A stretch of DNA of 25,950 nt. Origin: a virus. Within the stretch, counting starts at the first letter, position 1. Each line of letters starts with the position of its first letter. The stretch lies in IMG/VR virus record IMGVR_UViG_3300020406_000313, positions 1-25,950 of that record; one strand, written 5' to 3'. The notes below the pieces were generated by a model that saw only the letters and a list, made by a program, of their open reading frames with translations, searched no databases and was not told where the DNA came from. The position numbers were made by a program, and so were the translations under genes. This document shows, in pieces, positions 1,023-22,308 of this stretch.

Positions 1023-1730
1023 CCTTTTTTTACCGAAATTAGTCTCATAGGGATCAGGTTTGCCGTGAAATACTACAATACTACAGTCTTTGGGCACAAC
1101 ATGTTTTTCGTTTGGTTGTAAATAGTCCTCAGGGTATTTAACATCAGGCCCTCCTACACGAGTCCCACCATGTAGTATTTCCCATTTATAACTCATTGCC
1201 CAATTGTGTGGCCACCAAACACTATCAGTTCTTTTCTTAAAATAATCTGTTACTAAATCCTGATCTCCTCTATAGGATCTAATAATCTTTTCTGGATTTT
1301 CGATGAATTTAAGATATAGATCTGCCACTGCGCTGGGCGTAAAACGCATGATGCTACTGTTACTCACTGGATAATCAGGTAGAAACTGTCTGTTAAAGTC
1401 CTGACATATACAGAATTTATCAGGTTCATAGTCCCAAAATTTATCTATGTTACGAATAATGATTGTATCAAGATCCATGTATAGCACAGGGCTAGTCCAT
1501 TCATATGGTTGAAAAACTGCTATTTTATACCACCATAGTTTTCTTGGATCTCGAGATATAGGCCAGTCTGGCAAACGAATTATTCTAACACCCGGAAGTC
1601 CTATATCCTGATCAGTAAATACTGTTAAACGAAAGTCAGTACAATACTGGTGTAGATTTGTATATATTTGTTTGACATGCACGTTAGGATCAAACTTATC
1701 ACCTGCACATACTAGTGCTACTTCTTTCAT
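1008..1730 (-). CDS. GT-A fold glycosyltransferase (GT8-like)
   Basis: This is a 240-residue protein. YMDLDT at residues 85-90 is a DxD motif (D86, D88), which in GT-A enzymes binds the metal and the nucleotide sugar; HGKPDP near the C-terminus is consistent with the histidine/glycine motif of GT8-type enzymes. No signal peptide or membrane segment is seen, so it is probably cytoplasmic. Its ATG at 1730 overlaps the TGA of the cytidylyltransferase-cupin gene (ATGA), which couples transfer to sugar activation in one translation unit. Donor and acceptor are unknown. It is a single domain of normal length for short phage-encoded glycosyltransferases. Confidence 0.75.
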   Translation of the reverse strand: MKEVALVCAGDKFDPNVHVKQIYTNLHQYCTDFRLTVFTDQDIGLPGVRIIRLPDWPISRDPRKLWWYKIAVFQPYEWTSPVLYMDLDTIIIRNIDKFWDYEPDKFCICQDFNRQFLPDYPVSNSSIMRFTPSAVADLYLKFIENPEKIIRSYRGDQDLVTDYFKKRTDSVWWPHNWAMSYKWEILHGGTRVGGPDVKYPEDYLQPNEKHVVPKDCSIVVFHGKPDPYETNFGKKRLTVV

Positions 1731-2506
1731 TCGTAACGCTCTATATCATCTTCTGTTAGTAGTTCGCTTTTGCCTTTCCATATTTCTATAATATGTGCAG
1801 GTTCATTTGTGTCATTACATCCTTGATGCCAGGTTCTAGCAGGAATATCCACAGGATTATGTATACTTAGATTAAGTATACTGCAACTATTGTGTGGATC
1901 ACTGCCTGTGTGAGTTTTAACATATGCACTTCCGCTTACGAGATTCCATGTTTCTGAACGGTGTTTATGGCGTTGCATGCTTAGTTTACTATGAGGAGCA
2001 ATAACCAGTTCTTTTACTTGAAAGCCCTTGCCCTTGTATAGGTTACGATAGTGTCCCCAGTCTCTGACAGTCTTTGGTGCTTTCCATTCTCCAAGTATCC
2101 AACTACTGCTGTTTATTTTATCTGTGCCTCCAACTCCAAATACAAATTGTATATTGGGTGCATTAATAAAAAAATTTTGTTCGGGTGTAGTGTCTTGCTG
2201 TCTATCGCCACCATTAGCAAATATAATATGTTCTGCACCTTGACTTAATGCTTCGTGTATAGCATCGCATGCTGTGTCATCTGTATCCTTAAACTCTATA
2301 ACACGATCTACCATCCATAGATTTCTAACAATCATACCACGTTCTTCCCAGGGCATAAAGTGTTGACCTTTCTTACGAGCAAGCCAAGCGTCACTGTTCA
2401 ATCCTACCCAAAGTTTGTCGCCAAGTATACGAGCTGCTTTAAAATAATTAATATGTCCTGAATGAAGTGGATCAAAGCCACCTGTTACTAAAACTATCTT
2501 GCTCAT
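1727..2506 (-). CDS. Cytidylyltransferase-like domain fused to a phosphomannose isomerase-type cupin
   Basis: Residues 1-140 form a nucleotidyltransferase of the HxGH class: TGGFDPLHSGHI at 8-19 with H15 and H18, as in the RfaE/HldE C-terminal domain and TagD, which join a nucleotide to a sugar or polyol phosphate. Residues 150-259 form a cupin: WGHYRNLY, then SMQRHKHRSETW with metal-type ligands H180, H182, E185 and H227 in TWHQG. This resembles the isomerase half of ManC-type mannose-6-phosphate isomerase/GDP-mannose pyrophosphorylases. One chain would thus isomerise and activate a sugar phosphate. The start ATG at 2506 has AGG seven bases upstream. The gene is transcribed from the divergent region at 2507-2562 and overlaps the glycosyltransferase downstream. 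The exact substrate cannot be told. Confidence 0.8.
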   Translation of the reverse strand: MSKIVLVTGGFDPLHSGHINYFKAARILGDKLWVGLNSDAWLARKKGQHFMPWEERGMIVRNLWMVDRVIEFKDTDDTACDAIHEALSQGAEHIIFANGGDRQQDTTPEQNFFINAPNIQFVFGVGGTDKINSSSWILGEWKAPKTVRDWGHYRNLYKGKGFQVKELVIAPHSKLSMQRHKHRSETWNLVSGSAYVKTHTGSDPHNSCSILNLSIHNPVDIPARTWHQGCNDTNEPAHIIEIWKGKSELLTEDDIERYE

Positions 2507-2562: not shown

Positions 2563-3252
2563 ATGAACAATATATACGTTGGCTGGGATAGCCGAGAAGA
2601 TATTGCATACCAGGTATGCGAACATTCAATACTAAGACGCACATACAGAGAATTTGTAAATGTCATACCCCTCAAACAAAATGACTTACGAGAACAAAAA
2701 CTTTACTGGCGTGAAGTTGATAAACTTGCTAGTACAGAATTTACATTCACACGTTTTCTTATTCCACATCTAAATGGATACAAAGGCCTAGCAGTATTTT
2801 GTGATAGTGACATGGTATTTCTAACTGATGCACATAATCTATTCCAGAACGGATACAGGGACGAAAGCAAAGCAGTTTGGGTTGTAAAGCATGACTATAA
2901 TCCTCCTGAAGGGCTAAAAATGGATGGACAACTACAACTACAGTATCCTCGTAAAAACTGGAGTTCGTTCATGATATTCAATTGTGAACATCCCAGTTGT
3001 CGTAACCTAGATCTGGAAACTGTTAATAGCCAAACAGGCGCATACCTACATCGCTTTGAATGGTGTGATGACAGTGAAATAGGTGAACTGGGTTGTGAAT
3101 GGAACTGGCTTGTAGGACACTACGCAGAGCCCACTGACGGTACACCAAAAGTATTACACTATACAGAAGGTGGTCCATGGTTTGAAAACATGCGTGACTG
3201 TGAATATGATCATGTATGGAAAAAGGAAGTAATTAATCTTTATAGTTCATGA
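2563..3252 (+). CDS. GT-A fold glycosyltransferase (GT8-like)
   Basis: This 229-residue protein opens with NIYVGWDSREDIAY. At residues 79-85 it has FCDSDMV, a DxD motif (D81, D83) typical of GT-A transferases that use nucleotide sugars. HYTEGGPWF toward the end could supply the C-terminal histidine/glycine motif. AGGAT lies ten bases upstream of the ATG. The gene is read rightward, away from its neighbours, and its stop codon overlaps the start of the GT61-like gene by four bases, so the two are coupled. The second DxD enzyme of the window (1008-1730) has a similar layout but is only distantly alike. The sugar is unknown. Confidence 0.75.
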   Translation: MNNIYVGWDSREDIAYQVCEHSILRRTYREFVNVIPLKQNDLREQKLYWREVDKLASTEFTFTRFLIPHLNGYKGLAVFCDSDMVFLTDAHNLFQNGYRDESKAVWVVKHDYNPPEGLKMDGQLQLQYPRKNWSSFMIFNCEHPSCRNLDLETVNSQTGAYLHRFEWCDDSEIGELGCEWNWLVGHYAEPTDGTPKVLHYTEGGPWFENMRDCEYDHVWKKEVINLYSS

Positions 3253-4283
3253 TTAGTGTACGCGAAGCATTTGATTCTGAAGGTATAGGTGTATACAACA
3301 ACCTACAGATACTGGACTTTACCAGTAAAGTAGAATGGTTTGTGCAGGGCGAAGATGTTATACCCTATCATCTCGGAAAAAACCTAACATTTCTAAGTAA
3401 CAAAATAAAACCAACACCTCCCAGTGTAACACGCACTATACCTGGTACATTCTTTTATTGGTATACATTTCCCACTATGAACTACTATCATTGTATTAAT
3501 GATGGTGTAGGTCCACTATACAACTATTTTTTACTAAAAGATCGTATACCGGATATAAAATTTATTTTAAATGCTCGTCCTCGCAAAGTGGAAAAACATC
3601 CTCCCTTTGTTACTGAACTGCTAGATCTCCTGGATATTCCCTATGAATTTTCAGATCAGACTGCGCAATATGAACGTGTATACTTTAGTGATACACTGTG
3701 TAACGAACGTGGCACAGGCAAACGTAAACCGCCTGATAATAGAATATACAGTATTTTAGAACGCTTAGTAGGGATAAGCAGAATAAGATATCCTGATGTG
3801 CCCGTGCATGACAGTGTATATTTAAGCAGACGTGCTCACGCTAATCCGCAATACAATACACACATTATAGGTGAAGATAACACAGTAAAACGTGGATTAG
3901 TAAATGAAGATTTGATTGTGGATATTCTAAAGGATATAGGATTTACAGAAGTGTTTGGTGAGAATTACAATTTAGGTGAAAAGATCAGTATGTTTAGCAA
4001 AATGCAAAAATATATTAGTACAGCAGGTGCTGGTGTTACTAACTGTCTCTGGCGAATAAACGAACCTCTCAGTGTAGGAGGAATACATACACCAGGTTTT
4101 CCGTTTCCCAGTGAGGATCACAACAGACATATTGTTGCACAAAAACCCTGGATGCAGAATTGTAGAATAAGATTATATCCTGGAGAAGTTCGTTTTGAAG
4201 ATCCACAACCTACAAAAGGTTACAATCATCCCTGGTTAATTGCTAACACCCAGGAGTTTTATAACTGGGCAAAAACTATTTGA
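3249..4283 (+). CDS. GT61 (DUF563)-type glycosyltransferase
   Basis: This is a 344-residue protein. NYYHCINDGVGPLYNY (about 78-93) matches the histidine-aspartate N-terminal signature of GT61 enzymes. VYLSRR near the middle and NEDLIVDILKDIGF followed by STAGAGVTN (about 250-265) match the conserved core and GAxxTN motif of the family. GT61 members transfer xylose, GlcNAc or related sugars. The gene is coupled by ATGA to the glycosyltransferase upstream. Its last eight bases overlap the end of the convergent methyltransferase gene (4276-4950), so no terminator fits between them. Confidence 0.75.
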   Translation: MISVREAFDSEGIGVYNNLQILDFTSKVEWFVQGEDVIPYHLGKNLTFLSNKIKPTPPSVTRTIPGTFFYWYTFPTMNYYHCINDGVGPLYNYFLLKDRIPDIKFILNARPRKVEKHPPFVTELLDLLDIPYEFSDQTAQYERVYFSDTLCNERGTGKRKPPDNRIYSILERLVGISRIRYPDVPVHDSVYLSRRAHANPQYNTHIIGEDNTVKRGLVNEDLIVDILKDIGFTEVFGENYNLGEKISMFSKMQKYISTAGAGVTNCLWRINEPLSVGGIHTPGFPFPSEDHNRHIVAQKPWMQNCRIRLYPGEVRFEDPQPTKGYNHPWLIANTQEFYNWAKTI

Positions 4284-8729: not shown

Positions 8730-9227
8730 TTACTTTATAAAATAGTTTACAGTTATTCTTTTTTCAGGTTCCCAGTGTCCATAGTCGTGCCAGGTTACTC
8801 CGGGTATTCCTGAAAATATAAATGCACGATTTGGCTTCCATGCAACCTGTTTGACTAGTTCTTTGTTTTCATTGTAAAGGAATGTTCCGCTGCCATACTG
8901 TGGTGCAATGTAAACAACTGTGCTAACTTTCTTCTTTGCATGTTCATCATGTATGCCAAACATGTATCCGCGTTCAGGATCTGGCACACATCTTGCTATT
9001 TCACAGTAACTACTACCATTAGGTTCATTTTTATTATATGTTAAATGCTGTTTAATAAAATCTATTCCAGTATTGTCTTCAAAATAATTAATAATTTCCT
9101 TATCATAAACACGATTAAGACGTTTATCATTGCTAGACAAATTAAGTATTTTTTCTATTAAGGGATCTGTAAAAAAATTATCTATTACAAGATGTTCAAA
9201 AGGATATGTATATTTTTGTATTTCCAT
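8730..9227 (-). CDS. 2-oxoglutarate/Fe(II) oxygenase-like protein
   Basis: This 165-residue single domain has MFGIHDEHAKKKVSTVVYIA (89-108) followed by GSGTFLY, then WKPNRAFIF and WHDYGHW, then KRITVNYF (156-163). This is the order of the double-stranded beta helix of 2-oxoglutarate oxygenases: first ligand pair, GT strand, distal histidine (H147 or H151), and R157 for the co-substrate. The usual HxD pair reads H93-D-E95, so the acidic ligand is either E95 or shifted. Its ATG overlaps the stop of the radical SAM gene (TAATG). It may hydroxylate a sugar, lipid or protein; the target is unknown. Confidence 0.65.
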   Translation of the reverse strand: MEIQKYTYPFEHLVIDNFFTDPLIEKILNLSSNDKRLNRVYDKEIINYFEDNTGIDFIKQHLTYNKNEPNGSSYCEIARCVPDPERGYMFGIHDEHAKKKVSTVVYIAPQYGSGTFLYNENKELVKQVAWKPNRAFIFSGIPGVTWHDYGHWEPEKRITVNYFIK

Positions 9228-10192
9228 TATCTAAAATCATTCAGGCTAAATTTTGTGCCATTCATATGCATTTCTGATCTTCCACTATTAGTATACACTA
9301 ATGTTTCAGGATCGTCAATTAGAAAGTCACAGTCTTTGCAGAAGTCTGGATAATTACCAGTTCTATGTTGTTCTCGTAATTTTTCATAAAGTTTACCGGT
9401 CATTATTTCTTCCACAGTATTTTCACTAAAATGTCCAAGTACTGCTTCGTCGTCTCTGCCCAGCACTTGACAGCAGGGATGCACTGCACCTGCCTTACCA
9501 TCTGTACCGCCTGCACGAATTACTATATCTGGACTGAAAGGTCTTCCACATGTCTTAATTTTTCCGGAACGTTCATATTCCGGATTATATATTCCGCTCC
9601 AGTTGTGCATTTTCCATATCTCTGTGTGTACTCCTGCACTTTCAACTATTTTCCTATATTCTGAAACTTCATGTTCTATGTTATCATTATCCAAAACAAG
9701 ATGATAAGTTGCAACTTCAGTGCTTGCGCCTGTATCACGTACATATTGTTGCATGCGATGTAGATTGTCCACAACCTTTTCAAAGTTTGTGCTATTCATC
9801 CATTGTAAATATAGATCAGCATTGTATCCTATTATACTAAATCTGTAAAAGTCAAGTCCAGCATCAACACAATCCTCCATAAACTTGCCATGCATTTTGA
9901 ATCCGTTGGAAAATATGTATGCTTTAGCCTTGTATTTTTTAACTATTTCAATATAAAGTGGTAAGTCTGGATTTAGTGTGGCTTCTCCACTGCCTTCAAG
10001 ATTTACAACGTTGAGTCCACCAGCACTAGCACACTGCTTTACTGCTTCTTCAAAAAGATCAAGCGGCATTTTCTTTAGCCAGTTTTTGCCTCTAGCGCCA
10101 GTTTTACCTTCAGATGTAGTTTGTGGACACATTGCACATGTGTAATTACATCCTCCATTTATTTCAATGACTGCTCTATCTATTTCAAACAT
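9227..10192 (-). CDS. Radical SAM/SPASM-type enzyme
   Basis: The N-terminal radical SAM motif CNYTCAMC (C15, C19, C22) binds the SAM-reducing 4Fe-4S cluster, and GSGEATLNPDL (67-77) is the SAM amino-group motif. A C-terminal cysteine set (C215, C240, C241, C285, C288) fits a SPASM/twitch auxiliary cluster domain. The 321-residue length and motif order are standard for SPASM enzymes, which modify peptides or small molecules by radical chemistry. It differs from the other four radical SAM proteins here, whose auxiliary cysteines are N-terminal. It is the only gene of the block with a late-like element (10208-10215) directly upstream. No precursor peptide gene is visible nearby. Confidence 0.8.
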   Translation of the reverse strand: MFEIDRAVIEINGGCNYTCAMCPQTTSEGKTGARGKNWLKKMPLDLFEEAVKQCASAGGLNVVNLEGSGEATLNPDLPLYIEIVKKYKAKAYIFSNGFKMHGKFMEDCVDAGLDFYRFSIIGYNADLYLQWMNSTNFEKVVDNLHRMQQYVRDTGASTEVATYHLVLDNDNIEHEVSEYRKIVESAGVHTEIWKMHNWSGIYNPEYERSGKIKTCGRPFSPDIVIRAGGTDGKAGAVHPCCQVLGRDDEAVLGHFSENTVEEIMTGKLYEKLREQHRTGNYPDFCKDCDFLIDDPETLVYTNSGRSEMHMNGTKFSLNDFR

Positions 10193-10207
10193 AAGTATTC
10201 CCTTCTA

Positions 10208-10215
10208 TATTTATT
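10208..10215 (-). promoter_or_regulatory. T4-late-like promoter element
   Basis: AATAAATA on the minus strand overlaps the stop of the upstream gene and would start transcription about ten bases before the ATG at 10192, with AAGGG between. It matches the element at 2537-2544 exactly, but an eight-base AT-rich word can arise by chance. Confidence 0.3.
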
Positions 10216-10831
10216 GAAGGGTATCTATGTTTCGTTCCAGTTTACATACACTGTCATTGTTTATGAACTGTTCGTCAATGTGTTTATGTAAACACACCCA
10301 CCATGCAACATGTCCACTACTGGGCAATAGAGTTTCGTAAGGATTACGCATGCGATATCTTCTATGCATTATCACATGATCCGCAGCAAATCTTTCAGTT
10401 ACACCAACACGTGGACCCTGTCCACTTCCATAACCTATTACAAAATCATTAAAATGGGCACTTTCCAGATCACGTTGCCAGTTGTGTTCATATAGCACAA
10501 CGTCCGGACGTACTCTAATTATCATATCATAGTGTTCAGGTACCTGTTGCATGCAGTGCCAATGATTATACACTTGATATATTCGTTCGTGAAAACGTTT
10601 TCCGCTATCAAGTTTACGTGTAAACCATATACGAGTAGGATTGTTTGGCGGCAAACATGCTATCCAAGTATTAAATGCCAGTATAAATGTTTCCATACTG
10701 GGTAGTTCGGGTATGGGTGTGTCTGCCCAGGTGTGTTCAAACTGATCATAGGGCAGATATTTGCGTATACTTTCCATACAAAGTTCTGTATTGCCCCTAA
10801 ATTCTCCGCTTATGCAGACTGCGACATCCAT
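10211..10831 (-). CDS. Putative glycosyltransferase-like surface polysaccharide protein
   Basis: The start used is the ATG at 10831 with GAGGAG eight bases upstream; a TTG two codons earlier is too close to that site. It begins MDVAVCISGEFRGNTELCME, and the core YDMIIRVRPDVVLYE (about 103-117) has an RxRPD motif found in a group of phage and bacterial proteins linked to LPS and glycan synthesis. No classical DxD is seen; the RPD aspartate could take that role. The gene overlaps the SGNH gene end by 22 bases. The assignment is tentative and rests on one motif and on context. Confidence 0.5.
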   Translation of the reverse strand: MDVAVCISGEFRGNTELCMESIRKYLPYDQFEHTWADTPIPELPSMETFILAFNTWIACLPPNNPTRIWFTRKLDSGKRFHERIYQVYNHWHCMQQVPEHYDMIIRVRPDVVLYEHNWQRDLESAHFNDFVIGYGSGQGPRVGVTERFAADHVIMHRRYRMRNPYETLLPSSGHVAWWVCLHKHIDEQFINNDSVCKLERNIDTLQ

Positions 10832-11559
10832 GTGCAAAACTCCTCTGCCCAGCGTTTATAGTATATATGATTAGGATGCGTATCGTCCCGTGCAATCTGA
10901 TACTTCTGATCTAGGAGTACTTCGTCATGCATGCCAGTGTCTGGTTTGTAATAGTTCAACATATTAATTTGATCTCGCAATCGTTGTATCTCTGGCTTGT
11001 CAGTTGTTTGTTGCATGTGTCCATGCACACTATTATATAGCCAGTAGCGATTTTCTGGCAAATGATAACTTAGTTTATGAGTCATTGTAAGTTGTATTAA
11101 CAGTATGTTATAAAAACTCCAGTATGCAGTTGTTTCTAATAGATCAACCTTTTCAAAATCACTATCCCATGTTTTTGTAATAAACCAATCCTCAGGTATT
11201 TTAGGACCTTGGTTAAATGCGTTCTGTCTCCATTCGCTGGGATTGTTAAATTTTTTGCGTATTTTATTCTGATTGCGTGGTTCAGTGCGCACTGCCTGTA
11301 GTCTTAAGTTGGGCGGTAATCCTATAAGAAATATATCGTCACGTTCAAACTTATAACTGTGTAGTCTCCGTAGTACACCATCTAAACTTAATCCTGGACT
11401 AGCAATATTAAGTTCTTCAATGCCCATATATTTAGCAACTAGGGTGCCTGGACTTATGTGTTTATCAGCAAATGTTTCATATTCGCTGATAATGTTTCCA
11501 TAACTAAAACTACATCCAACATTAATAAGTCGCACTGGTGTGATCTTTCTGTCGCACAT
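10810..11559 (-). CDS. SGNH/GDSL-type hydrolase-like protein
   Basis: NVGCSFSYGN (13-22) gives the block I nucleophile S17, NIASPGLSLDGVLRRL (51-66) gives the block II-III region with N51, and DDTHPNHIYYKRWAE (225-239) gives the catalytic Asp-His of block V. This order marks the SGNH family, whose members remove or transfer acyl groups on carbohydrates and lipids. The 249-residue length fits a single domain. The start at 11559 overlaps the methyltransferase by 38 bases, the longest overlap of the operon. It may be a glycan O-acetyl esterase or transferase; no signal peptide, so action is cytoplasmic. Confidence 0.65.
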   Translation of the reverse strand: MCDRKITPVRLINVGCSFSYGNIISEYETFADKHISPGTLVAKYMGIEELNIASPGLSLDGVLRRLHSYKFERDDIFLIGLPPNLRLQAVRTEPRNQNKIRKKFNNPSEWRQNAFNQGPKIPEDWFITKTWDSDFEKVDLLETTAYWSFYNILLIQLTMTHKLSYHLPENRYWLYNSVHGHMQQTTDKPEIQRLRDQINMLNYYKPDTGMHDEVLLDQKYQIARDDTHPNHIYYKRWAEEFCTWMSQSA

Positions 11560-12340
11560 CTACATTTGTTTGACTATATTCGCCTTTTAGATCATCCACT
11601 ATATCATTTACATATCTTCCCTGGAACGGAATCTGAAACGGCTTATCTGACGTTTTAGTGTACGCAGTAACAATACTAACATTATGAGCTTTGCCTTCGC
11701 GATTATGAAGGGCATCAAAATGCTTTTCCAGATCACTAATAGGATTGCGAGGCTTCTTTTGTTCATAGTATGTCCAACTTTCCAAGTCCGTAGGGCAATC
11801 CACATACTTGCCCGTGTTCTGTGCTAACCACATGAACTGCCAACGATATCCATTTGCGGCTGCAATATCTCTAAACAGTTGTGGATGAAAACTATAAAAA
11901 CAGTGATTGAACCAGGGTGCGAACGGCAGGACATTTATCATAGTACCGCCTGTTTTACACAAATTGTGCATGTTTTCAAACACTGTGCGCTGATCAAATA
12001 TATGTTCACCAGTGCCGTTGTTTGTGACATAATCAAACTGTTCTGTATAATTATACTTGTCCTTTAATATAAAATTAAGATCCATAGCAATACTACGCAG
12101 TTCAGTGTTAATATCAATAGCAAGATAGTTTACAAATCCTAAATCTTCAAAGTACTGCCATACAAACTCCGTTGGTCTTCTGTGTATTCTTCCGGATATC
12201 TTTTCACATTCACTTAACCACTGTTCGTTGTATCTGAATCTCTGGTTTCCCCATTCAACAACTGTTGCACTGCCCACTGGAAAACAATCACGACGTGCTA
12301 GTTCTGCTGTTGCAAGTTGCATAATATTATTAAAAGCCAT
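11522..12340 (-). CDS. SAM-dependent methyltransferase-like protein
   Basis: This 272-residue protein contains YLAIDINTELRSIAMDLN (about 72-89), a motif II/III region with an acidic SAM-ribose ligand, then FDYVTNNGTGEHIFDQ (about 103-118) and GGTMINVLPF, the motif IV and beta5 region of class I methyltransferases. A classical glycine-rich motif I is not obvious and may be degenerate (VVEWGNQRF). The NGTGEHIFD pattern, with a following FHPQLF, also occurs in phage and bacterial glycan-modifying methyltransferases. It overlaps the radical SAM gene start by 11 bases. Substrate unknown; an inactive SAM-binding protein is possible. Confidence 0.6.
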   Translation of the reverse strand: MAFNNIMQLATAELARRDCFPVGSATVVEWGNQRFRYNEQWLSECEKISGRIHRRPTEFVWQYFEDLGFVNYLAIDINTELRSIAMDLNFILKDKYNYTEQFDYVTNNGTGEHIFDQRTVFENMHNLCKTGGTMINVLPFAPWFNHCFYSFHPQLFRDIAAANGYRWQFMWLAQNTGKYVDCPTDLESWTYYEQKKPRNPISDLEKHFDALHNREGKAHNVSIVTAYTKTSDKPFQIPFQGRYVNDIVDDLKGEYSQTNVDVRQKDHTSATY

Positions 12341-13460
12341 TGATAAGTTCCTCTACTTCTGGAAACGTTTTTGCAAAATTTGTATTTCTATATACGTCAT
12401 GCTTGTCTCTCATTGTTAAAAAACGTTGATAGTGTTCGCTACTGTTGTTTGTTTTCATGTATTTGCCCCAAGTCTTAACATCATCATGCTTGCTTGTATC
12501 TAAATATTTCGCTATACTTGTGCGTACAGGATCTGTATAAACACAGGGTCTCATGTGGCTAGGGTTGTGCGCTCTACCACACCAGGGTTTGGGTAATCCT
12601 ATATCACTACACCATGTAAAAAATTCATCAAGATAATATATGTTGTAAGCACTTACAGTGTGACTAACACTCAATTTAATGTTGTGTATATTTTGCTGTT
12701 CTAAATATCTATCAACGTTTTCTAATAGAACTGTATTCTTTGCTGGATATCTTATGTATTCATATCTGTTACCTACGCCATCTATACTAAGTTGTATATC
12801 TATCTCCTTAAAGTTTTCCCACAAACTCCACCATTTACTGTCAGGATATACCTGTGTGTTTGTTGTATAATGCAGTGCCATATGTTCGCTTTGTCCACTG
12901 TCAACATATCTTTGCAATAGTTCAAGTTGCTTATCTACTTCACTTAGGAAAGGTTCACCGCCCGGTATGTCAAAATGAATTGCGTTTGGCAATGCCCTAT
13001 ATATGTCCTCACTAGTCATATTGTTTATTACTTCGACTGGAGGTTTGTCAATACCATACAAATCTCTGTATTCTTTTCGCCAACGACTACTAGGACCAGG
13101 ATTACAAGTAATGCACTTTAGATTACATGTGTTGCCAAAAGCAATACTTGCTGTTATAAATCCTTGATCTTCTGTGTAATTATCATAGGCTTCTTGCCAA
13201 CGTTCATAGTCTAATAGTCTTTTACTCTTAATGCCACTTTCTTCTTCTGTTTTACATCTTACGCAACCCTCTGGCCATTGGTTGTCTAACATTTGCTGTT
13301 TTATTTTTTGTAAATTTTTACTCTTTACATAGTCATGAATTGTGTTTTTAGTAATATTCATGACTTCGCTATTAGGCACTTCATACTTACAGCAAGGCTG
13401 TATATTACCACGTGGTGCTATATCAATATTTGTCCAGGGTATGAGACATAGGGGTTGCAT
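12330..13460 (-). CDS. Twitch-domain radical SAM enzyme, paralogue A
   Basis: Residues 5-69 hold an N-terminal cysteine set (C5, C23, C24, C66, C69) that fits an auxiliary 4Fe-4S twitch domain placed before the core, as in the N-twitch radical SAM family. The core motif TCNLKCITC (C112, C116, C119) and IPGGEPFLS (166-173) follow. The IDGVGNRYEYIRYP block and the ending RNTNFAKTFPEVEEL recur in the copies at 17363, 20652 and 22308. Its ATG overlaps the stop of the methyltransferase upstream (TAATG). The substrate is unknown; members of this type are commonly found beside surface-glycan genes (from memory). Confidence 0.8.
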   Translation of the reverse strand: MQPLCLIPWTNIDIAPRGNIQPCCKYEVPNSEVMNITKNTIHDYVKSKNLQKIKQQMLDNQWPEGCVRCKTEEESGIKSKRLLDYERWQEAYDNYTEDQGFITASIAFGNTCNLKCITCNPGPSSRWRKEYRDLYGIDKPPVEVINNMTSEDIYRALPNAIHFDIPGGEPFLSEVDKQLELLQRYVDSGQSEHMALHYTTNTQVYPDSKWWSLWENFKEIDIQLSIDGVGNRYEYIRYPAKNTVLLENVDRYLEQQNIHNIKLSVSHTVSAYNIYYLDEFFTWCSDIGLPKPWCGRAHNPSHMRPCVYTDPVRTSIAKYLDTSKHDDVKTWGKYMKTNNSSEHYQRFLTMRDKHDVYRNTNFAKTFPEVEELINGF

Positions 13461-14158
13461 TAGTTGTCGTTATTATATCTTAATAGGTGATAGTATTCTC
13501 TACTGCCACTTGGTCTTGCTTGTCCGTGTTCAATAATTTTAAAATGTTTACTAAATGCTTCCAGCATCCGCTCAGTATGTTCTTGATTGTTAGGACGATT
13601 AGCAAGTTTCTGTGTTTCGTGTATAACTATACCATCTGGCGCCAATAGTTGCCAGTATGCTTTTGCAATCTGGTCTTCACTAAGTCCACCAAAGTCACGT
13701 AATTGTATACTCACCGCCAAACTTAGTAGTACATCAAATCTAGTTGCTGAAATCCTAGTGTAGTCATTAAACGTGCCTCTATACCATTTAACATTATCTG
13801 GTTTTTTGTTGTCCTTAAGATTTACAAATGGTTCAACACCAATACATTTTGCACAGTTTTCCGCTATTTGCCTTGTAATATATCCATCGTTACATCCAAC
13901 ATCAAGTAGTACACAACCCGGAACATCCTGCCCAGTGTCCCAGTACTGTTTCACTACTTCTTTAATTTTCATACGTTCTATTCTATCAGTGGCATCCTTC
14001 CAACCATAGCGTTTTTGATAGTTGTCCCATTCACTAATAATTTTATCTGATGGTTGTTTATATTCCATTTTCTTTCCTAGATGTTCTATATCCACTGACA
14101 GTACATGTGGTCTTTTGTGTTTTTTGTATTTTAGTTTTTGAGCCTCAGATTTAGCCAT
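13460..14158 (-). CDS. SAM-dependent methyltransferase with N-terminal shared motif
   Basis: VLLDVGCNDGYITRQIAENC (about 81-100) is a textbook motif I, CIGVEPF gives motif II, and DVLLSLAVSIQLRD gives motif IV of class I methyltransferases. In front, residues 34-51 (KQPSDKIISEWDNYQKRY) repeat the last part of the kinase-like protein encoded just upstream (221-238), a short helix shared by adjacent proteins. The first 30 residues are strongly basic. The start ATG at 14158 overlaps the kinase gene by eight bases, and the stop overlaps the radical SAM start. Context suggests methylation of a phosphorylated glycan end, as in kinase-methyltransferase capping of O-antigen chains (inference from the WbdD precedent). 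Confidence 0.75.
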   Translation of the reverse strand: MAKSEAQKLKYKKHKRPHVLSVDIEHLGKKMEYKQPSDKIISEWDNYQKRYGWKDATDRIERMKIKEVVKQYWDTGQDVPGCVLLDVGCNDGYITRQIAENCAKCIGVEPFVNLKDNKKPDNVKWYRGTFNDYTRISATRFDVLLSLAVSIQLRDFGGLSEDQIAKAYWQLLAPDGIVIHETQKLANRPNNQEHTERMLEAFSKHFKIIEHGQARPSGSREYYHLLRYNNDN

Positions 14159-14879
14159 TTATCTGATACCTCTGCTTGTAATTTTTCCATTCTTTAATAA
14201 CTTTATCAGGTGGACTAGTGTACAATTCCATACTAGCCCACTGTGTTCTTGGGTTGTTGTGTTTAACACTTTCAAATTTATCTTTATCCACTAGTTTTGC
14301 CATAAGTTCACTTTCATAACTCATAACTGGTTTTTGTAGTGCTAGTACTAAACTTTCTCTAAAATTATCTGGATTATAAAAGCCATATAGATAACTAAGT
14401 CTATCACTTAGTCTATCCTCTGCACGACTGTCCATAGGTACAGCCATTTCAAAATCTATTAAACTTATTACCCCGTCCTTAACGCAGAAATTACTTAGTG
14501 GAAACTTTGTGTGCTCTTTATTTTTCCCAGCAGGATCCATACCTGGGTAGAAGTATTTAACTTTTGCTTCTTCTAACGTGTCTGCTATAGCGTGTACTTG
14601 ATCAATATACTGTGTAAGATCATGTTCTTTCCAGGCTGGAAATAAACTTTCACCACAGTTAGACATAGATAAACTTAGATCAGACTCTTCACAGTCATCC
14701 AGTTGTGGAAAATGATCGTGTCCTTTAAGTCTTTGCAAGCAAGTAGTCTCACGCAACCAGCAGTCAAATATGCTTCCGCGAGCAGGTTTAACAGTTTTTT
14801 TATTTCTTAAACCATAGCATTTTACAACACGGTCTTCAGTTATAAAGCACCAACTTGCTTTACCCATTGTGTATTTCAT
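14151..14879 (-). CDS. Kinase-fold protein, likely sugar/LPS kinase type
   Basis: The start used is the ATG at 14879, which overlaps the TGA of the oxygenase gene (ATGA); a GTG nine codons earlier would lie inside that gene. RVVKCYG (17-23) supplies the ATP lysine K20, WLRETTCLQRL (41-51) the helix-C glutamate E44, LSMSNCGESL (70-79) the hinge, LSNFCVKDGV (128-137) the N130 metal ligand and LIDFEMA (140-146) the DFG-like aspartate D142. The order is that of small kinase-like folds (choline/LPS kinases). The C-terminus (221-238) carries the motif shared with the next protein's N-terminus. With the adjacent methyltransferase it could make a phospho-methyl cap on a glycan. Confidence 0.65.
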   Translation of the reverse strand: MKYTMGKASWCFITEDRVVKCYGLRNKKTVKPARGSIFDCWLRETTCLQRLKGHDHFPQLDDCEESDLSLSMSNCGESLFPAWKEHDLTQYIDQVHAIADTLEEAKVKYFYPGMDPAGKNKEHTKFPLSNFCVKDGVISLIDFEMAVPMDSRAEDRLSDRLSYLYGFYNPDNFRESLVLALQKPVMSYESELMAKLVDKDKFESVKHNNPRTQWASMELYTSPPDKVIKEWKNYKQRYQING

Positions 14880-15649
14880 TTGTTTTTTATTTCTTTTACT
14901 TTCCACATTTTTCCATTGCCGTTGAACTCGCCAATAATGTTTATACTGCGACGCCGCATTGTAGGCTCAATACGTGGTGTAACACCATGCACACTGTCTT
15001 TAACATTTAGAAACATGCAAAAGTTATTTGCTTCATAGGGCACTTCAAAGTGTGGAGTATGTAAACTGTCATCCACTTGACGTCCTAAACTTTTGTTTAC
15101 TTCTGTAATTTGGCCATGCACTCTATGGACTGTAAAGTTTCCGCCCTGTGCGCGATCTCCTGGCTGACGCATGTACAATAATCCGGCATAGATTTCAATA
15201 GGATTGTCCACATGTGGTGTACGACTTGTGCCTGTCTGATCTACAGGTTCGTGTACTACAAACTGGCAGTCTGCTACATACTGGCCTGTATTATCAACAT
15301 CACGTGGCGTAACACTTCCAGTGCTTAGATTATGCAAAAAGTCTGCACCATATGCAGTTTCGATACTTGGTGCAAACAGTTCTACACAACTTCTAAAGTA
15401 TTCAGGACTTGTATGATACTCAAAAAAGTCTTGCCAGATAGCAGGAGGTGCTTCCTGCGCACACTCCTTCATTTTGTAACGATAGCAAATACCTCCATCA
15501 TGTGGATCTGTACTGGTAACCAGTTCCATAGGAAATGTCTCACATAGTTCCTTATAACGTGCTGTAGGTAGTGCACCTTTAACACAAACATACGGATACG
15601 GATCAGTATGCACTTCTTTAACATTTTGTATACAACTTAGATCACTCAT
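14876..15649 (-). CDS. 2-oxoglutarate/Fe(II) oxygenase
   Basis: RTPHVDNP (143-150) gives the HxD pair H146 and D148, SVHGVTPR (219-226) the distal ligand H221, and RRRSINIIGEF (232-242) the arginine for 2-oxoglutarate. QGGNFTVHR between them is the usual GGxF strand. All three iron ligands are intact, unlike the variant set in the smaller oxygenase at 8730-9227. The length of 257 residues is typical for the phage and bacterial family with an N-terminal helical part. AAGGG lies eight bases before the ATG at 15649. A likely role is hydroxylation of a sugar or lipid in the glycan pathway; the substrate is not known. Confidence 0.75.
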   Translation of the reverse strand: MSDLSCIQNVKEVHTDPYPYVCVKGALPTARYKELCETFPMELVTSTDPHDGGICYRYKMKECAQEAPPAIWQDFFEYHTSPEYFRSCVELFAPSIETAYGADFLHNLSTGSVTPRDVDNTGQYVADCQFVVHEPVDQTGTSRTPHVDNPIEIYAGLLYMRQPGDRAQGGNFTVHRVHGQITEVNKSLGRQVDDSLHTPHFEVPYEANNFCMFLNVKDSVHGVTPRIEPTMRRRSINIIGEFNGNGKMWKVKEIKNK

Positions 15650-16550
15650 TTTTTATTCCCTTACTTTTAACTTGTTGTGTGGCATCATATTCGTGAGGAT
15701 TTTTTTGTTTCTCTGCCATAATCATACTCTTTGTAACATGGCGAATGTCTTTCCACCATGCTACATCCTGATGTTGAAAATTATTTGTAATATCATTTAG
15801 TGTGCTTTTGCCAACTTCCTTACGGAAACCCTTTAGGTGGTCCATGTATTTACCCAGTACACTATTAATAAACACATGTCCGCTTTGTTCTGAACCACCT
15901 AGATCTCGCATTTCAACACCCATGCTCTTAAAGTCCTCAACAAGTTCTCCAAAAATAAAACTGTCATGACTTTCCTTGTGTTTAAATATATCATCGCTTT
16001 CGTATATCCAACGCCATTGTTCCATTAGTTCCTGAAACTTTGGATGATTGCGATTAAACATCATCCAACCACATTCAGGCCAAGTTTTACGTCCCAAGTA
16101 TGTTGCTAGTTGATTTTCGTTGGGTGCAATTTCATTAAGGAATTCAATAGGCATAGGTGTATGCGTTCTAACATCTCCGTCACACCACATAAAAATGTCT
16201 GTTCCACATGTTTTTGCAAAATGCCAGAGTGCAAATGTTTTGTTTGCAAAACGACTTGCATCCCATAAAAAACTTTTCTTGCTCATATCATGATTCCATC
16301 CATGAGCATGTTTGTTATCCTTGTGACGCAGTTGCCATGCCTTAAGATCTGGCAGTGTAGTTGCTTGATCCAATACAGTAATATTTGGATTATTAGTAAT
16401 AGGTTCATGATCCTCTGCGTATATTGTAAGAGGAACACTTTGTGGCCAGTAATTGTTGTATCCCTCAATAAATTGCTGACCGTATTTTTTGTATCCTGCA
16501 GGGTGCCAGGAGGTAAATACTGATAATGTACGCATATAACTATTTACCAT
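15642..16550 (-). CDS. GT-A fold glycosyltransferase-like protein
   Basis: SVFTSWHPAGYKKYGQQF near the start and FMWCDGDVRTHTPMP (120-134) with DGD as the DxD motif indicate a GT-A-like transferase. RKTWPECGWMMFNRNHP is the typical acceptor-loop strand of the group, and HDSFIFGELV follows. An ATG at 16550 gives 302 residues; a second ATG at 16535 (MRTLSVFTSW) is equally likely because neither has a clear ribosome site. If 16550 is used, its start codon overlaps the oppositely directed start at 16549. It is the first gene of the long minus-strand block that continues to 4276. Confidence 0.65.
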   Translation of the reverse strand: MVNSYMRTLSVFTSWHPAGYKKYGQQFIEGYNNYWPQSVPLTIYAEDHEPITNNPNITVLDQATTLPDLKAWQLRHKDNKHAHGWNHDMSKKSFLWDASRFANKTFALWHFAKTCGTDIFMWCDGDVRTHTPMPIEFLNEIAPNENQLATYLGRKTWPECGWMMFNRNHPKFQELMEQWRWIYESDDIFKHKESHDSFIFGELVEDFKSMGVEMRDLGGSEQSGHVFINSVLGKYMDHLKGFRKEVGKSTLNDITNNFQHQDVAWWKDIRHVTKSMIMAEKQKNPHEYDATQQVKSKGIKNE

Positions 16551-17376
16551 GATTGTAAGTCACTTTCCAAATAATTTACCTGGCAACGCAAGTCTGGTAT
16601 ATCCTCAAGTTTTAGATGCAATTAAAAAAACAGATACACTCGTAGAAAACTCCATGGACGCGGATGCTGCACTTATTTGGAGTGTGCTATGGTATGGAAA
16701 AATGCGTCCTAATAAAGATGTATGGGATCATTATCGCGCACAGGGTAAGCCAGTTATTGTCATAGAAGTGGGCGGGCTATTACGCAACGCAACTTGGAAG
16801 TTGGGTATAAACGGGATCAACAGAGACGCAGAGTTTGCACTAAATGAATACATGCCAGATGATAGACAAAAAAAGTTTAGTATTGTACTACAGCCCTGGA
16901 AGCATGATGGTGATTATGTTCTAGTATGTGGACAACATGGTGCCAGCGAACAATGGCGCAACATGCCTGATATAAATACCTATTACAAGCAAACTGTAGA
17001 ACAGATAAGACAGGTTACAGATAAGCCTATTGTAATTCGTAGTCATCCAAGATATCCTGAGCAACATCAGTTTGAGGGCGTCACTTGGAACAGACCATTA
17101 CATGTGCAGGAAACCTATGATGATTTCGATCTTGATATAATGCTTGCACATGCATATTTTACAGTAAGTCACAGTAGCAATCCAGGCATACATAGTATTA
17201 TTGCAGGAGTGCCTGCTGTTGTTAGTGAACACAGTCTAGCATGGGATGTAAGCACTAGTATGTCTAAATGGCTAAGTAAACCCCATAGACATCAATGGTT
17301 AAATCGTATTACATATACTGAATGGTTTGCAGACGAAATACATATCCAATGGAGTAGACTTCGTGATTATATTTGA
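16549..17376 (+). CDS. Capsule-type GT-B glycosyltransferase, paralogue 3
   Basis: This 275-residue protein is related to the proteins at 5922-6866 and 6859-7671 by FTVSHSSNPGIHSIIAGVP then AVVSEHS, the donor-binding block of the capsule/Kdo-transferase-type GT-B fold. IVIRSHPRYPEQ is the basic strand that precedes it. DYVLVCGQHGASEQWRN begins the C-terminal domain. It is the only one of the three on the plus strand, and its N-terminal half (IWSVLWYGKMRPNKDVW) differs from theirs. No ribosome site is evident at the ATG. It overlaps the following radical SAM gene by 14 bases. Confidence 0.65.
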   Translation: MIVSHFPNNLPGNASLVYPQVLDAIKKTDTLVENSMDADAALIWSVLWYGKMRPNKDVWDHYRAQGKPVIVIEVGGLLRNATWKLGINGINRDAEFALNEYMPDDRQKKFSIVLQPWKHDGDYVLVCGQHGASEQWRNMPDINTYYKQTVEQIRQVTDKPIVIRSHPRYPEQHQFEGVTWNRPLHVQETYDDFDLDIMLAHAYFTVSHSSNPGIHSIIAGVPAVVSEHSLAWDVSTSMSKWLSKPHRHQWLNRITYTEWFADEIHIQWSRLRDYI

Positions 17377-18868
17377 AAAGGAAATAAGCGAATATTACAC
17401 GCAACCATTTGAAGATATGTATAGGGATCTTATAAGAATTAAAAAGGATCACTATACAAATGAACAGATTATAATTACAAGTTATGGCTGGACAAATGAA
17501 AATATTTGGCGTCATTTTTTTCGTATAGTAAATTCAATTGATATACCTACATATTTTATAAAAGTAAAAACAAACAACCCTGATACAATACGCATAGTAA
17601 GAGAACAGTGCGGCAAATGTGTGCCAAAAGATAATATTGTTGAATGTACAATAGTGCTTAAACCACTGCCAACAAAAAGTTATATCAATAACCGTTTCGA
17701 TATTCATGATGCTATGTGTATAAATCCTTTTACAAATCTAGAAGTTGCAGTGAATGGAAATATTACAGTGTGTTGTGACTTAGACAGCGCATACTATGGA
17801 ACTGATCTACTACCAAAACCTTTAAACATAAAAGATAGTTCTATAGAAGAAGCAAAGAACAGTGAACATGTACGAAAGATACAACAGGATTTTTTGCAAG
17901 GAAAATCAACACCATACTGTAACAGTTGCTGGAACAACGAAGCAGTTGGATTTCCTAGCAAAAGACAGCGAGACGAATATTTTTTTCGTGATATAATATA
18001 CACTACTGACTTTCATAATTCAAACGAAATACAAACACTTGATCTAAAGATGGGATTTACTTGTAATTTGAAATGTAGAATATGCTCACATCAACTTAGC
18101 AGTAGTTGGTATAGTGAAGATAAACGATACGATAATGTGCCTAGTATAAAAACACTGGACTATGGATACACTCTTAGTAGAAAAATGTGGTCAGATGCTG
18201 TGGACAATTTGCCTGATCTACGCTATATAAATTATGCTGGAGGTGAACCACTACTGGACAAAACACATCTAGCAAAACTTGAAAGATTAATAGAATTAAA
18301 TAGAAAAAATGTTCACATCCATTACAACACTAACGGAACAGTGTATAGTGAACGTCATATAGAACTACTGGAACAATTTGATACTGTTAGTATAACCTTT
18401 AGTATAGATAACACAGAAGAAAGATTTGAATATGAAAGGCACGGATCCGATTGGAACACAGTTCTGAAAACACTAGACAAGTATAGCAAACTGGATAGAA
18501 GTCGCTTTATACTGGAGTTTTTTCCAACTGTAAATATTTTTAATGTTATGTATCTTGATGGTGTAATAGATCTTTGTGATCAGTTAGGTTTTCAGTATGC
18601 TTTTGGATTTGTAAATAAACCAAAATATTTAAGTCTATACAATATTCCACCTGAAAACCGTCACGTTGTAACTGAACGCTTACGGAGTAGTAAACACAGT
18701 AAGATACAATCTCTTGCAAGAAGATTTGAGGAACAGGATACATATCATGACATGCAAGCAGAATTATGGAATGAAATTACTAGAATAGATTTGCGTAGAA
18801 ACGAAAACTTTTGTGCAACTTATCCTGAACTATCTAAACTACTGCACATCCCAGTCAGTCAATTCTAA
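17363..18868 (+). CDS. Twitch-domain radical SAM enzyme, paralogue B, with N-terminal extension
   Basis: A GTG at 17363 with GGAG eight bases upstream is the preferred start; an ATG at 17327 lacks such a site and lies further inside the previous gene. The 501-residue protein is longer than its paralogues: residues 1-110 form an extra domain (SYGWTNENIWRHFFRIV) of unknown role. Then come C119, C137, C138, C186 and C189 (twitch cysteines), the core FTCNLKCRIC (C234, C238, C241), YAGGEPLLD (291-299), and the shared FEYERHG block. The last 14 bases overlap the convergent UvsY-like gene. It may belong to the glycan system. Confidence 0.8.
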   Translation: MIIFEKEISEYYTQPFEDMYRDLIRIKKDHYTNEQIIITSYGWTNENIWRHFFRIVNSIDIPTYFIKVKTNNPDTIRIVREQCGKCVPKDNIVECTIVLKPLPTKSYINNRFDIHDAMCINPFTNLEVAVNGNITVCCDLDSAYYGTDLLPKPLNIKDSSIEEAKNSEHVRKIQQDFLQGKSTPYCNSCWNNEAVGFPSKRQRDEYFFRDIIYTTDFHNSNEIQTLDLKMGFTCNLKCRICSHQLSSSWYSEDKRYDNVPSIKTLDYGYTLSRKMWSDAVDNLPDLRYINYAGGEPLLDKTHLAKLERLIELNRKNVHIHYNTNGTVYSERHIELLEQFDTVSITFSIDNTEERFEYERHGSDWNTVLKTLDKYSKLDRSRFILEFFPTVNIFNVMYLDGVIDLCDQLGFQYAFGFVNKPKYLSLYNIPPENRHVVTERLRSSKHSKIQSLARRFEEQDTYHDMQAELWNEITRIDLRRNENFCATYPELSKLLHIPVSQF

Positions 18869-19316
18869 TATCCTCCATGCCCGCTGTGCGCAATCTAACA
18901 ACATGTCCCATTTGCCATTGTTTAGTATCTAGTCCTTTCATGATACCCAACCAGCGATTGCGTAACAGTGCAACTTCATTAATAATAGTTTCAAAATCAA
19001 TAACTTCATCTTCTCCGTCTACATACTTTTCTGCATCTCTACTAGTCAATGCTCTCGCATAACCTTCCAAATATTTCTGAAAATGTTTGCGGCGAATCTT
19101 GCGTAGTTGTATATTAAGATAGTTTAGCACTGCTTCTATCTCCTGTAACTGATTAAAGCGATGTTCTGTTATTCCGGGCAACGCTGTTATATTACGCTCC
19201 ACAATACCTTTTACACTACACTCGCGTTTTGCCTCTTCCAACTCTGTTTCATAGTAACTAATAAAACTAGGAATAGCACCTAAATCATTTACAATTCTAT
19301 TATAGTACTGACTCAA
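18855..19316 (-). CDS. UvsX-cluster protein, possible UvsY-like recombination mediator
   Basis: This is a 153-residue, largely helical protein rich in charged residues. The block YLEGYARALTSRDAEKYVDG then VALLRNRWLGIMKGLDTKQW and VVRLRTAGMED is strongly patterned and familiar to me from marine T4-type phages. In T4 the accessory protein UvsY loads UvsX on gp32-coated DNA; this gene's position directly after uvsX fits, but the size, motifs and T4 gene order do not prove it. The start is a TTG at 19316 that overlaps the TGA of the previous gene; no in-frame ATG exists near it. The 3' end overlaps the convergent radical SAM gene. Confidence 0.55.
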   Translation of the reverse strand: MSQYYNRIVNDLGAIPSFISYYETELEEAKRECSVKGIVERNITALPGITEHRFNQLQEIEAVLNYLNIQLRKIRRKHFQKYLEGYARALTSRDAEKYVDGEDEVIDFETIINEVALLRNRWLGIMKGLDTKQWQMGHVVRLRTAGMEDIRID

Positions 19317-19546
19317 TAGTCTTCATCTTCGTAATCGAAGTCCTCTTCGGGTTCGCCAAGAATATCCATTACACTGGCTTTCATATTCTTATCAAGTCCC
19401 GCTAGTCTATAAAGTTCTTCCTCATCCAACAGTTCTTGCAAGTCATCCACTAGATGATCAGTTGCTTGTTGCATGTCCTTCTGTGAGATATATTGTTTTA
19501 AAATAGTGTAAACTTGTTTAACTATTTCTTCATTCATGCATTTCAT
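19313..19546 (-). CDS. Small acidic protein in the uvsX operon
   Basis: This 77-residue protein starts at the ATG at 19546, whose GAGG lies five bases upstream inside the uvsX tail; a second ATG at 19537 (MNEE) is possible. It is mostly helix, with DDLQELLDEEELYRLAG in the middle and a highly acidic ending EPEEDFDYEDEDY. The gene overlaps uvsX and the UvsY-like gene by a few bases. I do not recognise a family. An acidic tail next to recombination proteins may mimic DNA or contact gp32 or UvsX, which is conjecture from composition only. Confidence 0.6.
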   Translation of the reverse strand: MKCMNEEIVKQVYTILKQYISQKDMQQATDHLVDDLQELLDEEELYRLAGLDKNMKASVMDILGEPEEDFDYEDEDY

Positions 19547-20618: not shown

Positions 20619-20645
20619 GTTTTTCTCCTATGAGCCTATGTTAGT

Positions 20646-20674
20646 ATTATATTACAGATAACGTTCAATGTCAA
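20646..20674 (-). promoter_or_regulatory. Perfect consensus sigma70 promoter of uvsX
   Basis: On the minus strand TTGACA (20674-20669), a 17-base spacer and TATAAT (20651-20646) match the bacterial sigma70 consensus exactly. The start would be near 20639, giving a 21-base leader that contains AGGAG. The -35 box and spacer lie inside the last codons of the radical SAM gene at 20652, so this gene's end doubles as the promoter. Confidence 0.9.
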
Positions 20675-21782: not shown

Positions 21783-22308
21783 AGCCAAGACTGATCTCCT
21801 GCAATCTTAGATTACGTTTCTTACAGTATTCCCAGGTGTCCACAACTGCTTCACACCAATCTCTAACAGGCGCACTGTCAACACCTGCAGTGTTGTGTGG
21901 TTGTGTTGCAACTATACCAGGGCGTATAAGCACTAGTCTACATTTACTGGATGTATTTTTTAGATTGTAATATGCTTGATCAAGTGTTTGTTTTTGTAGT
22001 TTGTACTCCTGCATTTCAAAATCTACAGTGTATTGTGCGCTCATAATACTGCCTATTAGCCAGATAAGTTTGCGTTGATCATGCCATTGATGCCATACTT
22101 TGTATAATAATTCTGTTTGTGCATAACCTGCTTGTGCGTTGTTAATAAACCAATCACACTCAACAATAGGGCCAACTATCTTTTGCAAACTACGAATATT
22201 GTTTCCGTCACGCCTACTAAGACCTACAACTTCATGTCCTCGTTCAGACAGTATTTGTGCAAAACACTGTCCTATACCTGCTGAATGTCCTGTGATTGCC
22301 ACACGCAT
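21772..22308 (-). CDS. Short-chain dehydrogenase/reductase-like protein
   Basis: This 178-residue protein has TGHSAGIG (6-13), the NAD(P)-binding glycine motif, NNA (56-58) that stabilises the central sheet, S87/S90 and EYKLQK with Y102 and K106 as the YxxxK catalytic pair. At 178 residues it is shorter than the usual 230-260, lacking part of the substrate-binding region. The ATG at 22308 overlaps the stop of the radical SAM gene (TAATG). A likely task is oxidation or reduction of a sugar or sugar-nucleotide group. The SDR-radical SAM-radical SAM arrangement suggests one modification sequence. Confidence 0.75.
   Translation of the reverse strand: MRVAITGHSAGIGQCFAQILSERGHEVVGLSRRDGNNIRSLQKIVGPIVECDWFINNAQAGYAQTELLYKVWHQWHDQRKLIWLIGSIMSAQYTVDFEMQEYKLQKQTLDQAYYNLKNTSSKCRLVLIRPGIVATQPHNTAGVDSAPVRDWCEAVVDTWEYCKKRNLRLQEISLGYGS

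What the first reader, a model, noticed from the sequence alone, without database searches (positions are those of the whole stretch)
1727..2506. Cytidylyltransferase-cupin fusion
An HxGH nucleotidyltransferase domain (1-140) is joined to a phosphomannose-isomerase-type cupin (150-259). The known isomerase fusion in bacteria is to the unrelated GDP-mannose pyrophosphorylase fold. Here the cupin keeps its metal ligands but partners with the RfaE/TagD class, which suggests a different activated sugar or polyol, made in two steps by one chain.
Basis: partly seen in the sequence, partly recalled or inferred. Interest (0 to 1): 0.6.

Follow-up and report, generated by a model that had tools for sequence, protein, structure and literature searches.

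The report
Nucleotidyltransferase–isomerase fusion, likely ManC substitute
A marine phage and many SAR86 ocean bacteria carry one protein that joins two sugar-activating enzymes of unrelated folds, and the bacterial gene patterns suggest that it replaces the usual enzyme that makes GDP-mannose, a building block of cell-surface sugars.

Summary
Window 1727-2506 (-) encodes 259 aa: an HxGH nucleotidyltransferase (PF01467) joined to a PMI-II cupin (PF01050), all predicted catalytic and metal residues kept, AF2 pLDDT 94.5. It is not a one-off. The same fusion is in about 50 IMG/VR contigs and on SAR86 chromosomes (82 of 151 sampled genomes of the order full-length), but in none of 397 other sampled Pseudomonadota. 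No paper I found describes it. The window is a fragment of a T4-like, jumbo-related myovirus; there the gene overlaps a glycosyltransferase gene by 4 bp.

The new evidence is on the bacterial side. An Elusimicrobium MAG has the two domains as separate adjacent genes in the order PMM–NTase–PMI cupin–GT–GMD–GDP-fucose synthase. In SAR86's order the fusion and ManC never co-occur (0 of 17 ManC genomes; 89 of the other 134), yet together they cover 26 of 28 genomes with GDP-mannose dehydratase. Two inspected genomes have GMD but no recognisable GDP-mannose pyrophosphorylase. I therefore infer that it does ManC's two jobs (F6P→M6P; Man-1-P→GDP-mannose) with an unrelated transferase fold. The activity is inferred, not shown.

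The parts
1727..2506 (-). Fusion gene: HxGH nucleotidyltransferase plus PMI-II cupin, 259 aa
   Evidence: ORF; Pfam; conserved over the full length in viral and bacterial homologues
2084..2506 (-). N-terminal nucleotidyltransferase domain (residues 1-141): GGFDPLHSGH, NSDAWLARKKG, FANGGDR, GGTDKINSSSW
   Evidence: PF01467; phrog_7878 E 5e-28; VIA Z 14.6-16.0 to 3glv, 1coz, 2b7l, 5xf2 (HldC) and 5x3d (Fom1)
1730..2074 (-). C-terminal PMI-II cupin (residues 145-259): S176-x-Q178-x-H180-x-x-R183-x-E185 ... H227
   Evidence: PF01050; VIA Z 15.7-15.9 to Thermococcus phosphomannose isomerases 7zvm and 7zvy, and Z 16.2 to the CapF cupin; invariant residues
1008..1730 (-). Glycosyltransferase-like gene, overlapping the end of the fusion by 4 bp (1727-1730), so probably translationally coupled
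   Evidence: phrog_1962 glycosyltransferase E 2e-24; coordinates; the neighbour downstream of the fusion in the viral set is mostly a GT8-like gene
2563..3252 (+). Divergent GT8-like gene; in related phages its homologue flanks the fusion on the same strand
   Evidence: phrog_28018 E 1e-52; cluster 5 adjacency
3249..4283 (+). GT61-family glycosyltransferase
   Evidence: PF04577 E 4e-8

Best explanation
A bifunctional sugar-activating enzyme that does the two jobs of ManC with a non-homologous transferase. The C-terminal cupin interconverts fructose-6-P and mannose-6-P. A separate phosphomannomutase of the host makes mannose-1-P. The N-terminal HxGH nucleotidyltransferase then joins mannose-1-P to a nucleotide, most likely GTP, giving GDP-mannose and PPi. 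In SAR86 this feeds surface-polysaccharide islands with GMD-type GDP-deoxysugars. In the phage it would feed the translationally coupled glycosyltransferases. Shown: the two domains, kept catalytic and metal residues, recurrent pairing, genomic context, and mutual exclusion with ManC. Inferred: substrate, nucleotide, direction, and the role in the phage.
For: Domains and invariant residues. PMI-II residues S, Q, H and R (R408 of P. aeruginosa, as listed in PMC9602691) are S176, Q178, H180, R183 here. The cupin's solved neighbours include Thermococcus PMIs, Z 15.7-15.9, rmsd 1.6 over 101-103 residues. Elusimicrobium MAG L143: PMM (PF03332, E 6e-28), NTase, cupin PMI, GT2, GMD (558 bits, over cut-off) and GDP-fucose synthase in one run of genes, NTase and cupin split by one TAG. 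Same neighbourhood in SAR86 (L084, L122, L139, L157: GMD plus Fcl-like) and Dadabacteria (L145-L150: GMD). In 151 genomes of SAR86's order: fusion and ManC overlap 0 of 17, Fisher p 6e-8; GMD genomes are 21 fusion, 5 ManC, 2 neither. Fusion and GMD lie within 45 kb in 17 of 21 genomes, against about 1.8 expected. PF00483 inventory in two GMD genomes: complete chromosome G001 has RmlA, GalU-like, MurU-like, GlmU; G004 has RmlA, GlgC, RfbF, GlmU; no recognisable GDP-mannose pyrophosphorylase. The two domains have been re-paired more than once.
Against: To my knowledge no HxGH enzyme is known to make a GDP-sugar; the family uses CTP or ATP, and its best named matches are HldE-C and TagD, both far below the equivalog cut-offs. 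68 fusion genomes lack GMD. Two GMD genomes have neither ManC nor fusion. The mutual exclusion may partly follow SAR86 phylogeny, which I did not correct for. MurU-like proteins (160-205 bits against a cut-off of 250) could conceivably make GDP-mannose. In phages no GMD was seen next to the fusion, and 80 viral GMD loci carry no close relative of its NTase. The fused cupin lacks the terminal DxYGR that stand-alone cupins keep. The trees rest on few columns.
Confidence: 0.5

Rival explanations
1. Same logic, different product: the cupin isomerises a ketose phosphate and the NTase makes a CDP-, ADP- or other NDP-sugar or polyol that is not GDP-mannose. GDP-mannose in these bacteria would come from another, unrecognised enzyme.
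For: The NTase domain is nearest to HldE-C, TagD and Fom1-type transferases that use ATP or CTP. Many fusion genomes lack GMD. Phage copies sit with glycosyltransferases, not GMD.
Against: PMM-NTase-PMI-GMD-Fcl order in L143; exclusion with ManC and coverage of 26 of 28 GMD genomes; no pyrophosphorylase candidate in G001 or G004 except a MurU-like protein in G001.
Confidence: 0.28
2. It supplies ADP-heptose-like sugars: the cupin replaces GmhA (S7P isomerase) and the NTase replaces HldE-C.
For: Best NCBIfam match is rfaE_dom_II, E 5e-19. S7P/manno-heptose-7-P isomerisation resembles F6P/M6P chemistry (established knowledge).
Against: Only 4 of 30 fusion genomes have a strong HldE kinase match (G019, G023, G030, G074) and 8 of 30 have a GmhA-like match, none over the GmhA cut-off; fusion-negative genomes have the kinase more often.
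Confidence: 0.07
3. The cupin is not an isomerase but a sugar epimerase, another tailoring enzyme or a regulatory domain, and only the NTase does what is proposed.
For: CapF's cupin (Z 16.2) matches as well as PMI's. The terminal DxYGR is missing. Some SAR86 copies have lost the cupin and keep the NTase at the same locus (L153-L155).
Against: Sequence family is PMI-II, not CapF or RmlC; S/Q/H/R signature and metal ligands invariant or nearly so; second-type fusions (L113, L136, L157) carry cupins with the full PMI motif ending in YGR.
Confidence: 0.13

Closest known systems
ManC/AlgA/XanB-type bifunctional PMI-GDP-mannose pyrophosphorylase (TIGR01479)
   Same: One chain joins a PMI-II cupin (C-terminal, E 7.7e-18 to that part of the model) to a sugar nucleotidyltransferase (N-terminal); same genomic niche near GMD in SAR86's order
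   Different: The transferase is HxGH/Rossmann type, not GT-A (PF00483) type; no match to the GMP part of the model; 259 aa instead of about 470
HldE C-terminal / HldC (RfaE domain II, TIGR02199)
   Same: HxGH fold, GGD motif, acts on a manno-configured sugar-1-phosphate; VIA Z 14.6 to HldC 5xf2
   Different: 68.5 bits against a cut-off of 181.5; NGGDR where HldC has KGGDY; joined to a cupin, not a kinase; heptose pathway mostly absent
TagD/TarD glycerol-3-phosphate cytidylyltransferase (TIGR01518)
   Same: HxGH fold, Z 14.8-15.0, 25-29% identity
   Different: 48 bits against 165.4; the family has NSSSW where TagD has ISTT (TagD motif from memory)
Stand-alone cyanophage nucleotidyltransferase (S-SSM7 SSSM7_186, P-TIM68, S-SCSM2R; phrog_7878)
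   Same: Same NTase subfamily, 54-57% identity, NGGDR and NSSSW kept
   Different: No cupin; sits between DNA polymerase gp43 and uvsX; annotated as hypothetical, G3P cytidylyltransferase or heptose enzyme
Cyanophage S-SCSM1 mannose-6-phosphate isomerase (PMC9602691)
   Same: Type II PMI cupin in marine T4-like phages, same S/Q/H/R residues
   Different: Discussed there as an isomerase gene; a fusion to an HxGH transferase was not seen in the passages read

Membership tests
PMI type II cupin (PF01050) | Match over the family cut-off | tested here: met
   69.8 bits against 23.6
PMI type II cupin (PF01050) | Ser, Gln, His and Arg (R408) of the 9-residue motif | tested here: met
   S176 42/43, Q178, H180 and R183 43/43; residues named in PMC9602691
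PMI type II cupin (PF01050) | C-terminal EDDIxRxxDxYGR | tested here: inconclusive
   EDDIERYE kept, DxYGR missing in the window and most fusions, present in L113, L136, L157
PMI type II cupin (PF01050) | F6P/M6P isomerase activity | not testable with these tools
   needs purified enzyme
HxGH nucleotidyltransferase (PF01467) | Match over cut-off, HxGH and a C-terminal S/T-rich NTP motif | tested here: met
   44.1 bits against 21; H15, G17, H18, S134, S135 invariant
HldE-C / RfaE domain II (TIGR02199) | Equivalog score of at least 181.5 bits | tested here: not met
   68.5 bits
Glycerol-3-phosphate cytidylyltransferase (TIGR01518) | Equivalog score of at least 165.4 bits | tested here: not met
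   48.1 bits
ManC bifunctional PMI/GMP (TIGR01479) | GT-A type GMP domain at the N-terminus | tested here: not met
   Only model positions 358-462 match; 64.5 bits against 372.95
ManC bifunctional PMI/GMP (TIGR01479) | Works as PMI plus GDP-mannose pyrophosphorylase | not testable with these tools
   Supported indirectly by context and exclusion

The most novel reading that the evidence does not exclude
The HxGH nucleotidyltransferase is a second, unrelated kind of mannose-1-phosphate guanylyltransferase: a fold not known to make GDP-sugars, fused to PMI, has displaced ManC in SAR86 and is carried by the large marine phages of this window.
Probability: 0.45. Interest if true: 0.75.

Novelty: new variant of a known kind. 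Interest (0 to 1): 0.58.

Why it matters
GDP-mannose is the entry point to mannose, fucose, perosamine and related surface sugars. If the inference holds, one of the most abundant groups of ocean bacteria makes it with an enzyme that annotation would call 'adenylyltransferase/cytidyltransferase family' or 'heptose adenylyltransferase', so pathway reconstructions would wrongly score the pathway as missing, and phages carry the same enzyme. It would add a nucleotide specificity (GTP) and an acceptor class to the HxGH family, and show convergent assembly of a PMI-pyrophosphorylase fusion from unrelated transferases. The test is a single small protein in vitro.

Tried and rejected
ADP-heptose pathway: HldE kinase and GmhA are mostly absent from fusion genomes. 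TagD-like teichoic role: score far below the equivalog cut-off. Phage curiosity or chimera: rejected by bacterial chromosomes including a complete one. Eukaryotic-type PMM (PF03332) as a general partner: found only in the Elusimicrobium genome, 1 of 57. Viral co-occurrence with GMD: no close relative of the NTase within 8 kb of 80 viral GMD loci; only weak, distant NTase and ManC-type cupin matches. Plasmid search: only ManC cupin or weak distant matches. PDB sequence search with the cupin alone: only 2oa2 at E 0.23. Structure matches at the cupin end do not separate PMI from CapF. Literature searches found no description of this pair.

Full report
Observation. The ORF at 1727-2506 (-) is real: 259 aa, ATG start, two Pfam domains over cut-off. 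Residues 7-84 match CTP_transf_like and 145-259 match MannoseP_isomer. In a 43-row alignment of full-length homologues the HxGH motif, K45-K46, N98-G-G-D-R102, K130, S134-S135 and the cupin residues Q178, H180, R183, E185, H227 are invariant. H182 of the canonical HxH cupin motif is not invariant (25 of 43), so the likely metal set is Q178/H180/E185/H227, as in the Gln/His/Glu/His set of type I PMI (from memory); this is inferred from conservation, not from coordinates. AlphaFold2 gives pLDDT 94.5 and pTM 0.68, i.e. two well-formed domains with less certain relative placement.

Where it lies. The window is a 25,950-base IMG/VR virus record with UvsX, UvsY and a gp32-type SSB; UvsX is closest to jumbo phages such as Phosso and Atu_ph07. 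The fusion's stop overlaps the start of a glycosyltransferase-like gene (1008-1730, phrog_1962) by 4 bp, and a GT8-like gene (2563-3252) and a GT61 gene follow divergently. In related viral contigs the gene after the fusion is usually a GT8-like gene, in others a methyltransferase-like gene (family read from the sequence), often with a 1-4 base overlap.

How common. A viral-contig scan returned 67 loci, about 50 with the full fusion at 49-72% identity. In phage records only the single domains were found: the NTase alone in Synechococcus and Prochlorococcus phages (54-57% identity, beside gp43 and uvsX) and distant cupins. In L058-L062 and L071 both occur as separate genes, with a probable glycosyltransferase gene beside the cupin. 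A scan of genome contigs found the full fusion in many SAR86 contigs including the complete chromosome CP097973.1, in SAR116 and Dadabacteria, and in phage contigs binned into MAGs. In 151 genomes drawn from SAR86's order 89 have a match, 82 of them full-length or nearly so; in 398 Pseudomonadota only the SAR86 reference itself matched. The fusion is therefore lineage-enriched, not rare and not general.

What the bacterial context says. In the Elusimicrobium MAG locus L143 the NTase ends at a TAG and the cupin starts one codon later; upstream is a eukaryotic-type phosphomannomutase (PF03332, E 5.9e-28), downstream a GT2, GDP-mannose 4,6-dehydratase and GDP-fucose synthase. That is a full F6P-to-GDP-fucose set if the NTase is the mannose-1-P guanylyltransferase. 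GMD and an Fcl-like gene also sit close to the fusion in SAR86 loci L084, L122, L139 and L157, and GMD in Dadabacteria L145-L150. A published SAR86 genome notes GDP-mannose dehydratases in a hypervariable outer-membrane island (PMC3569297).

Presence and absence. Over the same 151 genomes, ManC's pyrophosphorylase domain occurs in 17 and never with the fusion (0 of 17 against 89 of 134; Fisher p 6e-8). Genomes with GMD number 28: 21 have the fusion, 5 ManC, 2 neither (G037, G137). Fusion and GMD lie within 45 kb in 17 of 21 genomes. I listed PF00483 proteins in ten GMD-bearing fusion genomes plus G003 and G004 and read 20 of them, ten by NCBIfam. G001, a complete chromosome, has RmlA, a GalU-like, a MurU-like (159.7 bits against 250) and GlmU; G004 has RmlA, GlgC, RfbF and GlmU. 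Neither has a recognisable GDP-mannose pyrophosphorylase. These statistics are not corrected for shared ancestry, genome completeness is unknown, and 68 fusion genomes have no GMD.

Evolution. In the NTase tree most SAR86 copies group apart from phage copies, and three SAR86 NTase-only genes (L153-L155) nest among fusions at the same synteny, so the cupin has been lost there. In the cupin tree, L113, L136 and L157 carry a different cupin with the full YGR ending, and viral L043-L048 carry a cupin like SAR86 L075/L078 although their NTase groups with other phages. The same pair has thus probably been joined or re-joined more than once, which argues for a functional link. Support values are modest and columns few.

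Mechanism. Best reading: cupin = metal-dependent F6P/M6P isomerase; host PMM makes Man-1-P; HxGH domain = Man-1-P nucleotidyltransferase, probably with GTP. Steps 1 and 3 on one chain repeat ManC's layout with an unrelated transferase. The nucleotide is the weakest point: I know of no HxGH enzyme that makes a GDP-sugar. In the phage the product would serve the coupled glycosyltransferases, by analogy only; no GMD was found in the window or beside viral copies, and 80 viral GMD loci lack close relatives of the NTase.

Verdict. No characterisation was found in the searched papers, which lack most subscription journals.

Noticed in passing
window 8730-23300: Several radical SAM/SPASM genes (9227-10192, 12330-13460, 17327-18868; 20652-21788 and 22308-23273 look alike by eye) lie among methyltransferase- and glycosyltransferase-like genes between the fusion and gp32: an unusual density for a T4-like phage, function unknown.
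   Followed up: partly
L153 5007-5450, L154 5011-5475, L155 5002-5445: SAR86 genomes where the cupin half is gone but the NTase stays at the same locus as the fusion in relatives; no PMI-type cupin was found elsewhere in three of these genomes.
   Followed up: partly
L143 6001-6777: NTase and cupin are two adjacent in-frame genes separated by a single TAG, a natural split or pre-fusion state; a second weaker hit in the same genome also holds one TAG.
   Followed up: partly
L081, L085, L094, L110, L130, L073, L074: Phage-like contigs with structural or replication genes are binned in bacterial MAGs (Rhodobacteraceae Water_Bin34, Pirellulales, Bacteroidetes, Neomarinimicrobiota), so taxonomic calls from these loci are unsafe.
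   Followed up: partly
L089 9302-10104, L117, L111: Some SAR86 fusion loci also carry a kinase-like gene and another nucleotidyltransferase-like gene (clusters 99 and 100) as a pair.
   Followed up: no
phage records OR845929.1, OR851530.1, OR848984.1: Short 'Escherichia', 'Salmonella' and 'Listeria phage' records of 1.5-3 kb holding GMD, ManC-type cupin or TagD-like matches look like host DNA deposited as phage.
   Followed up: no
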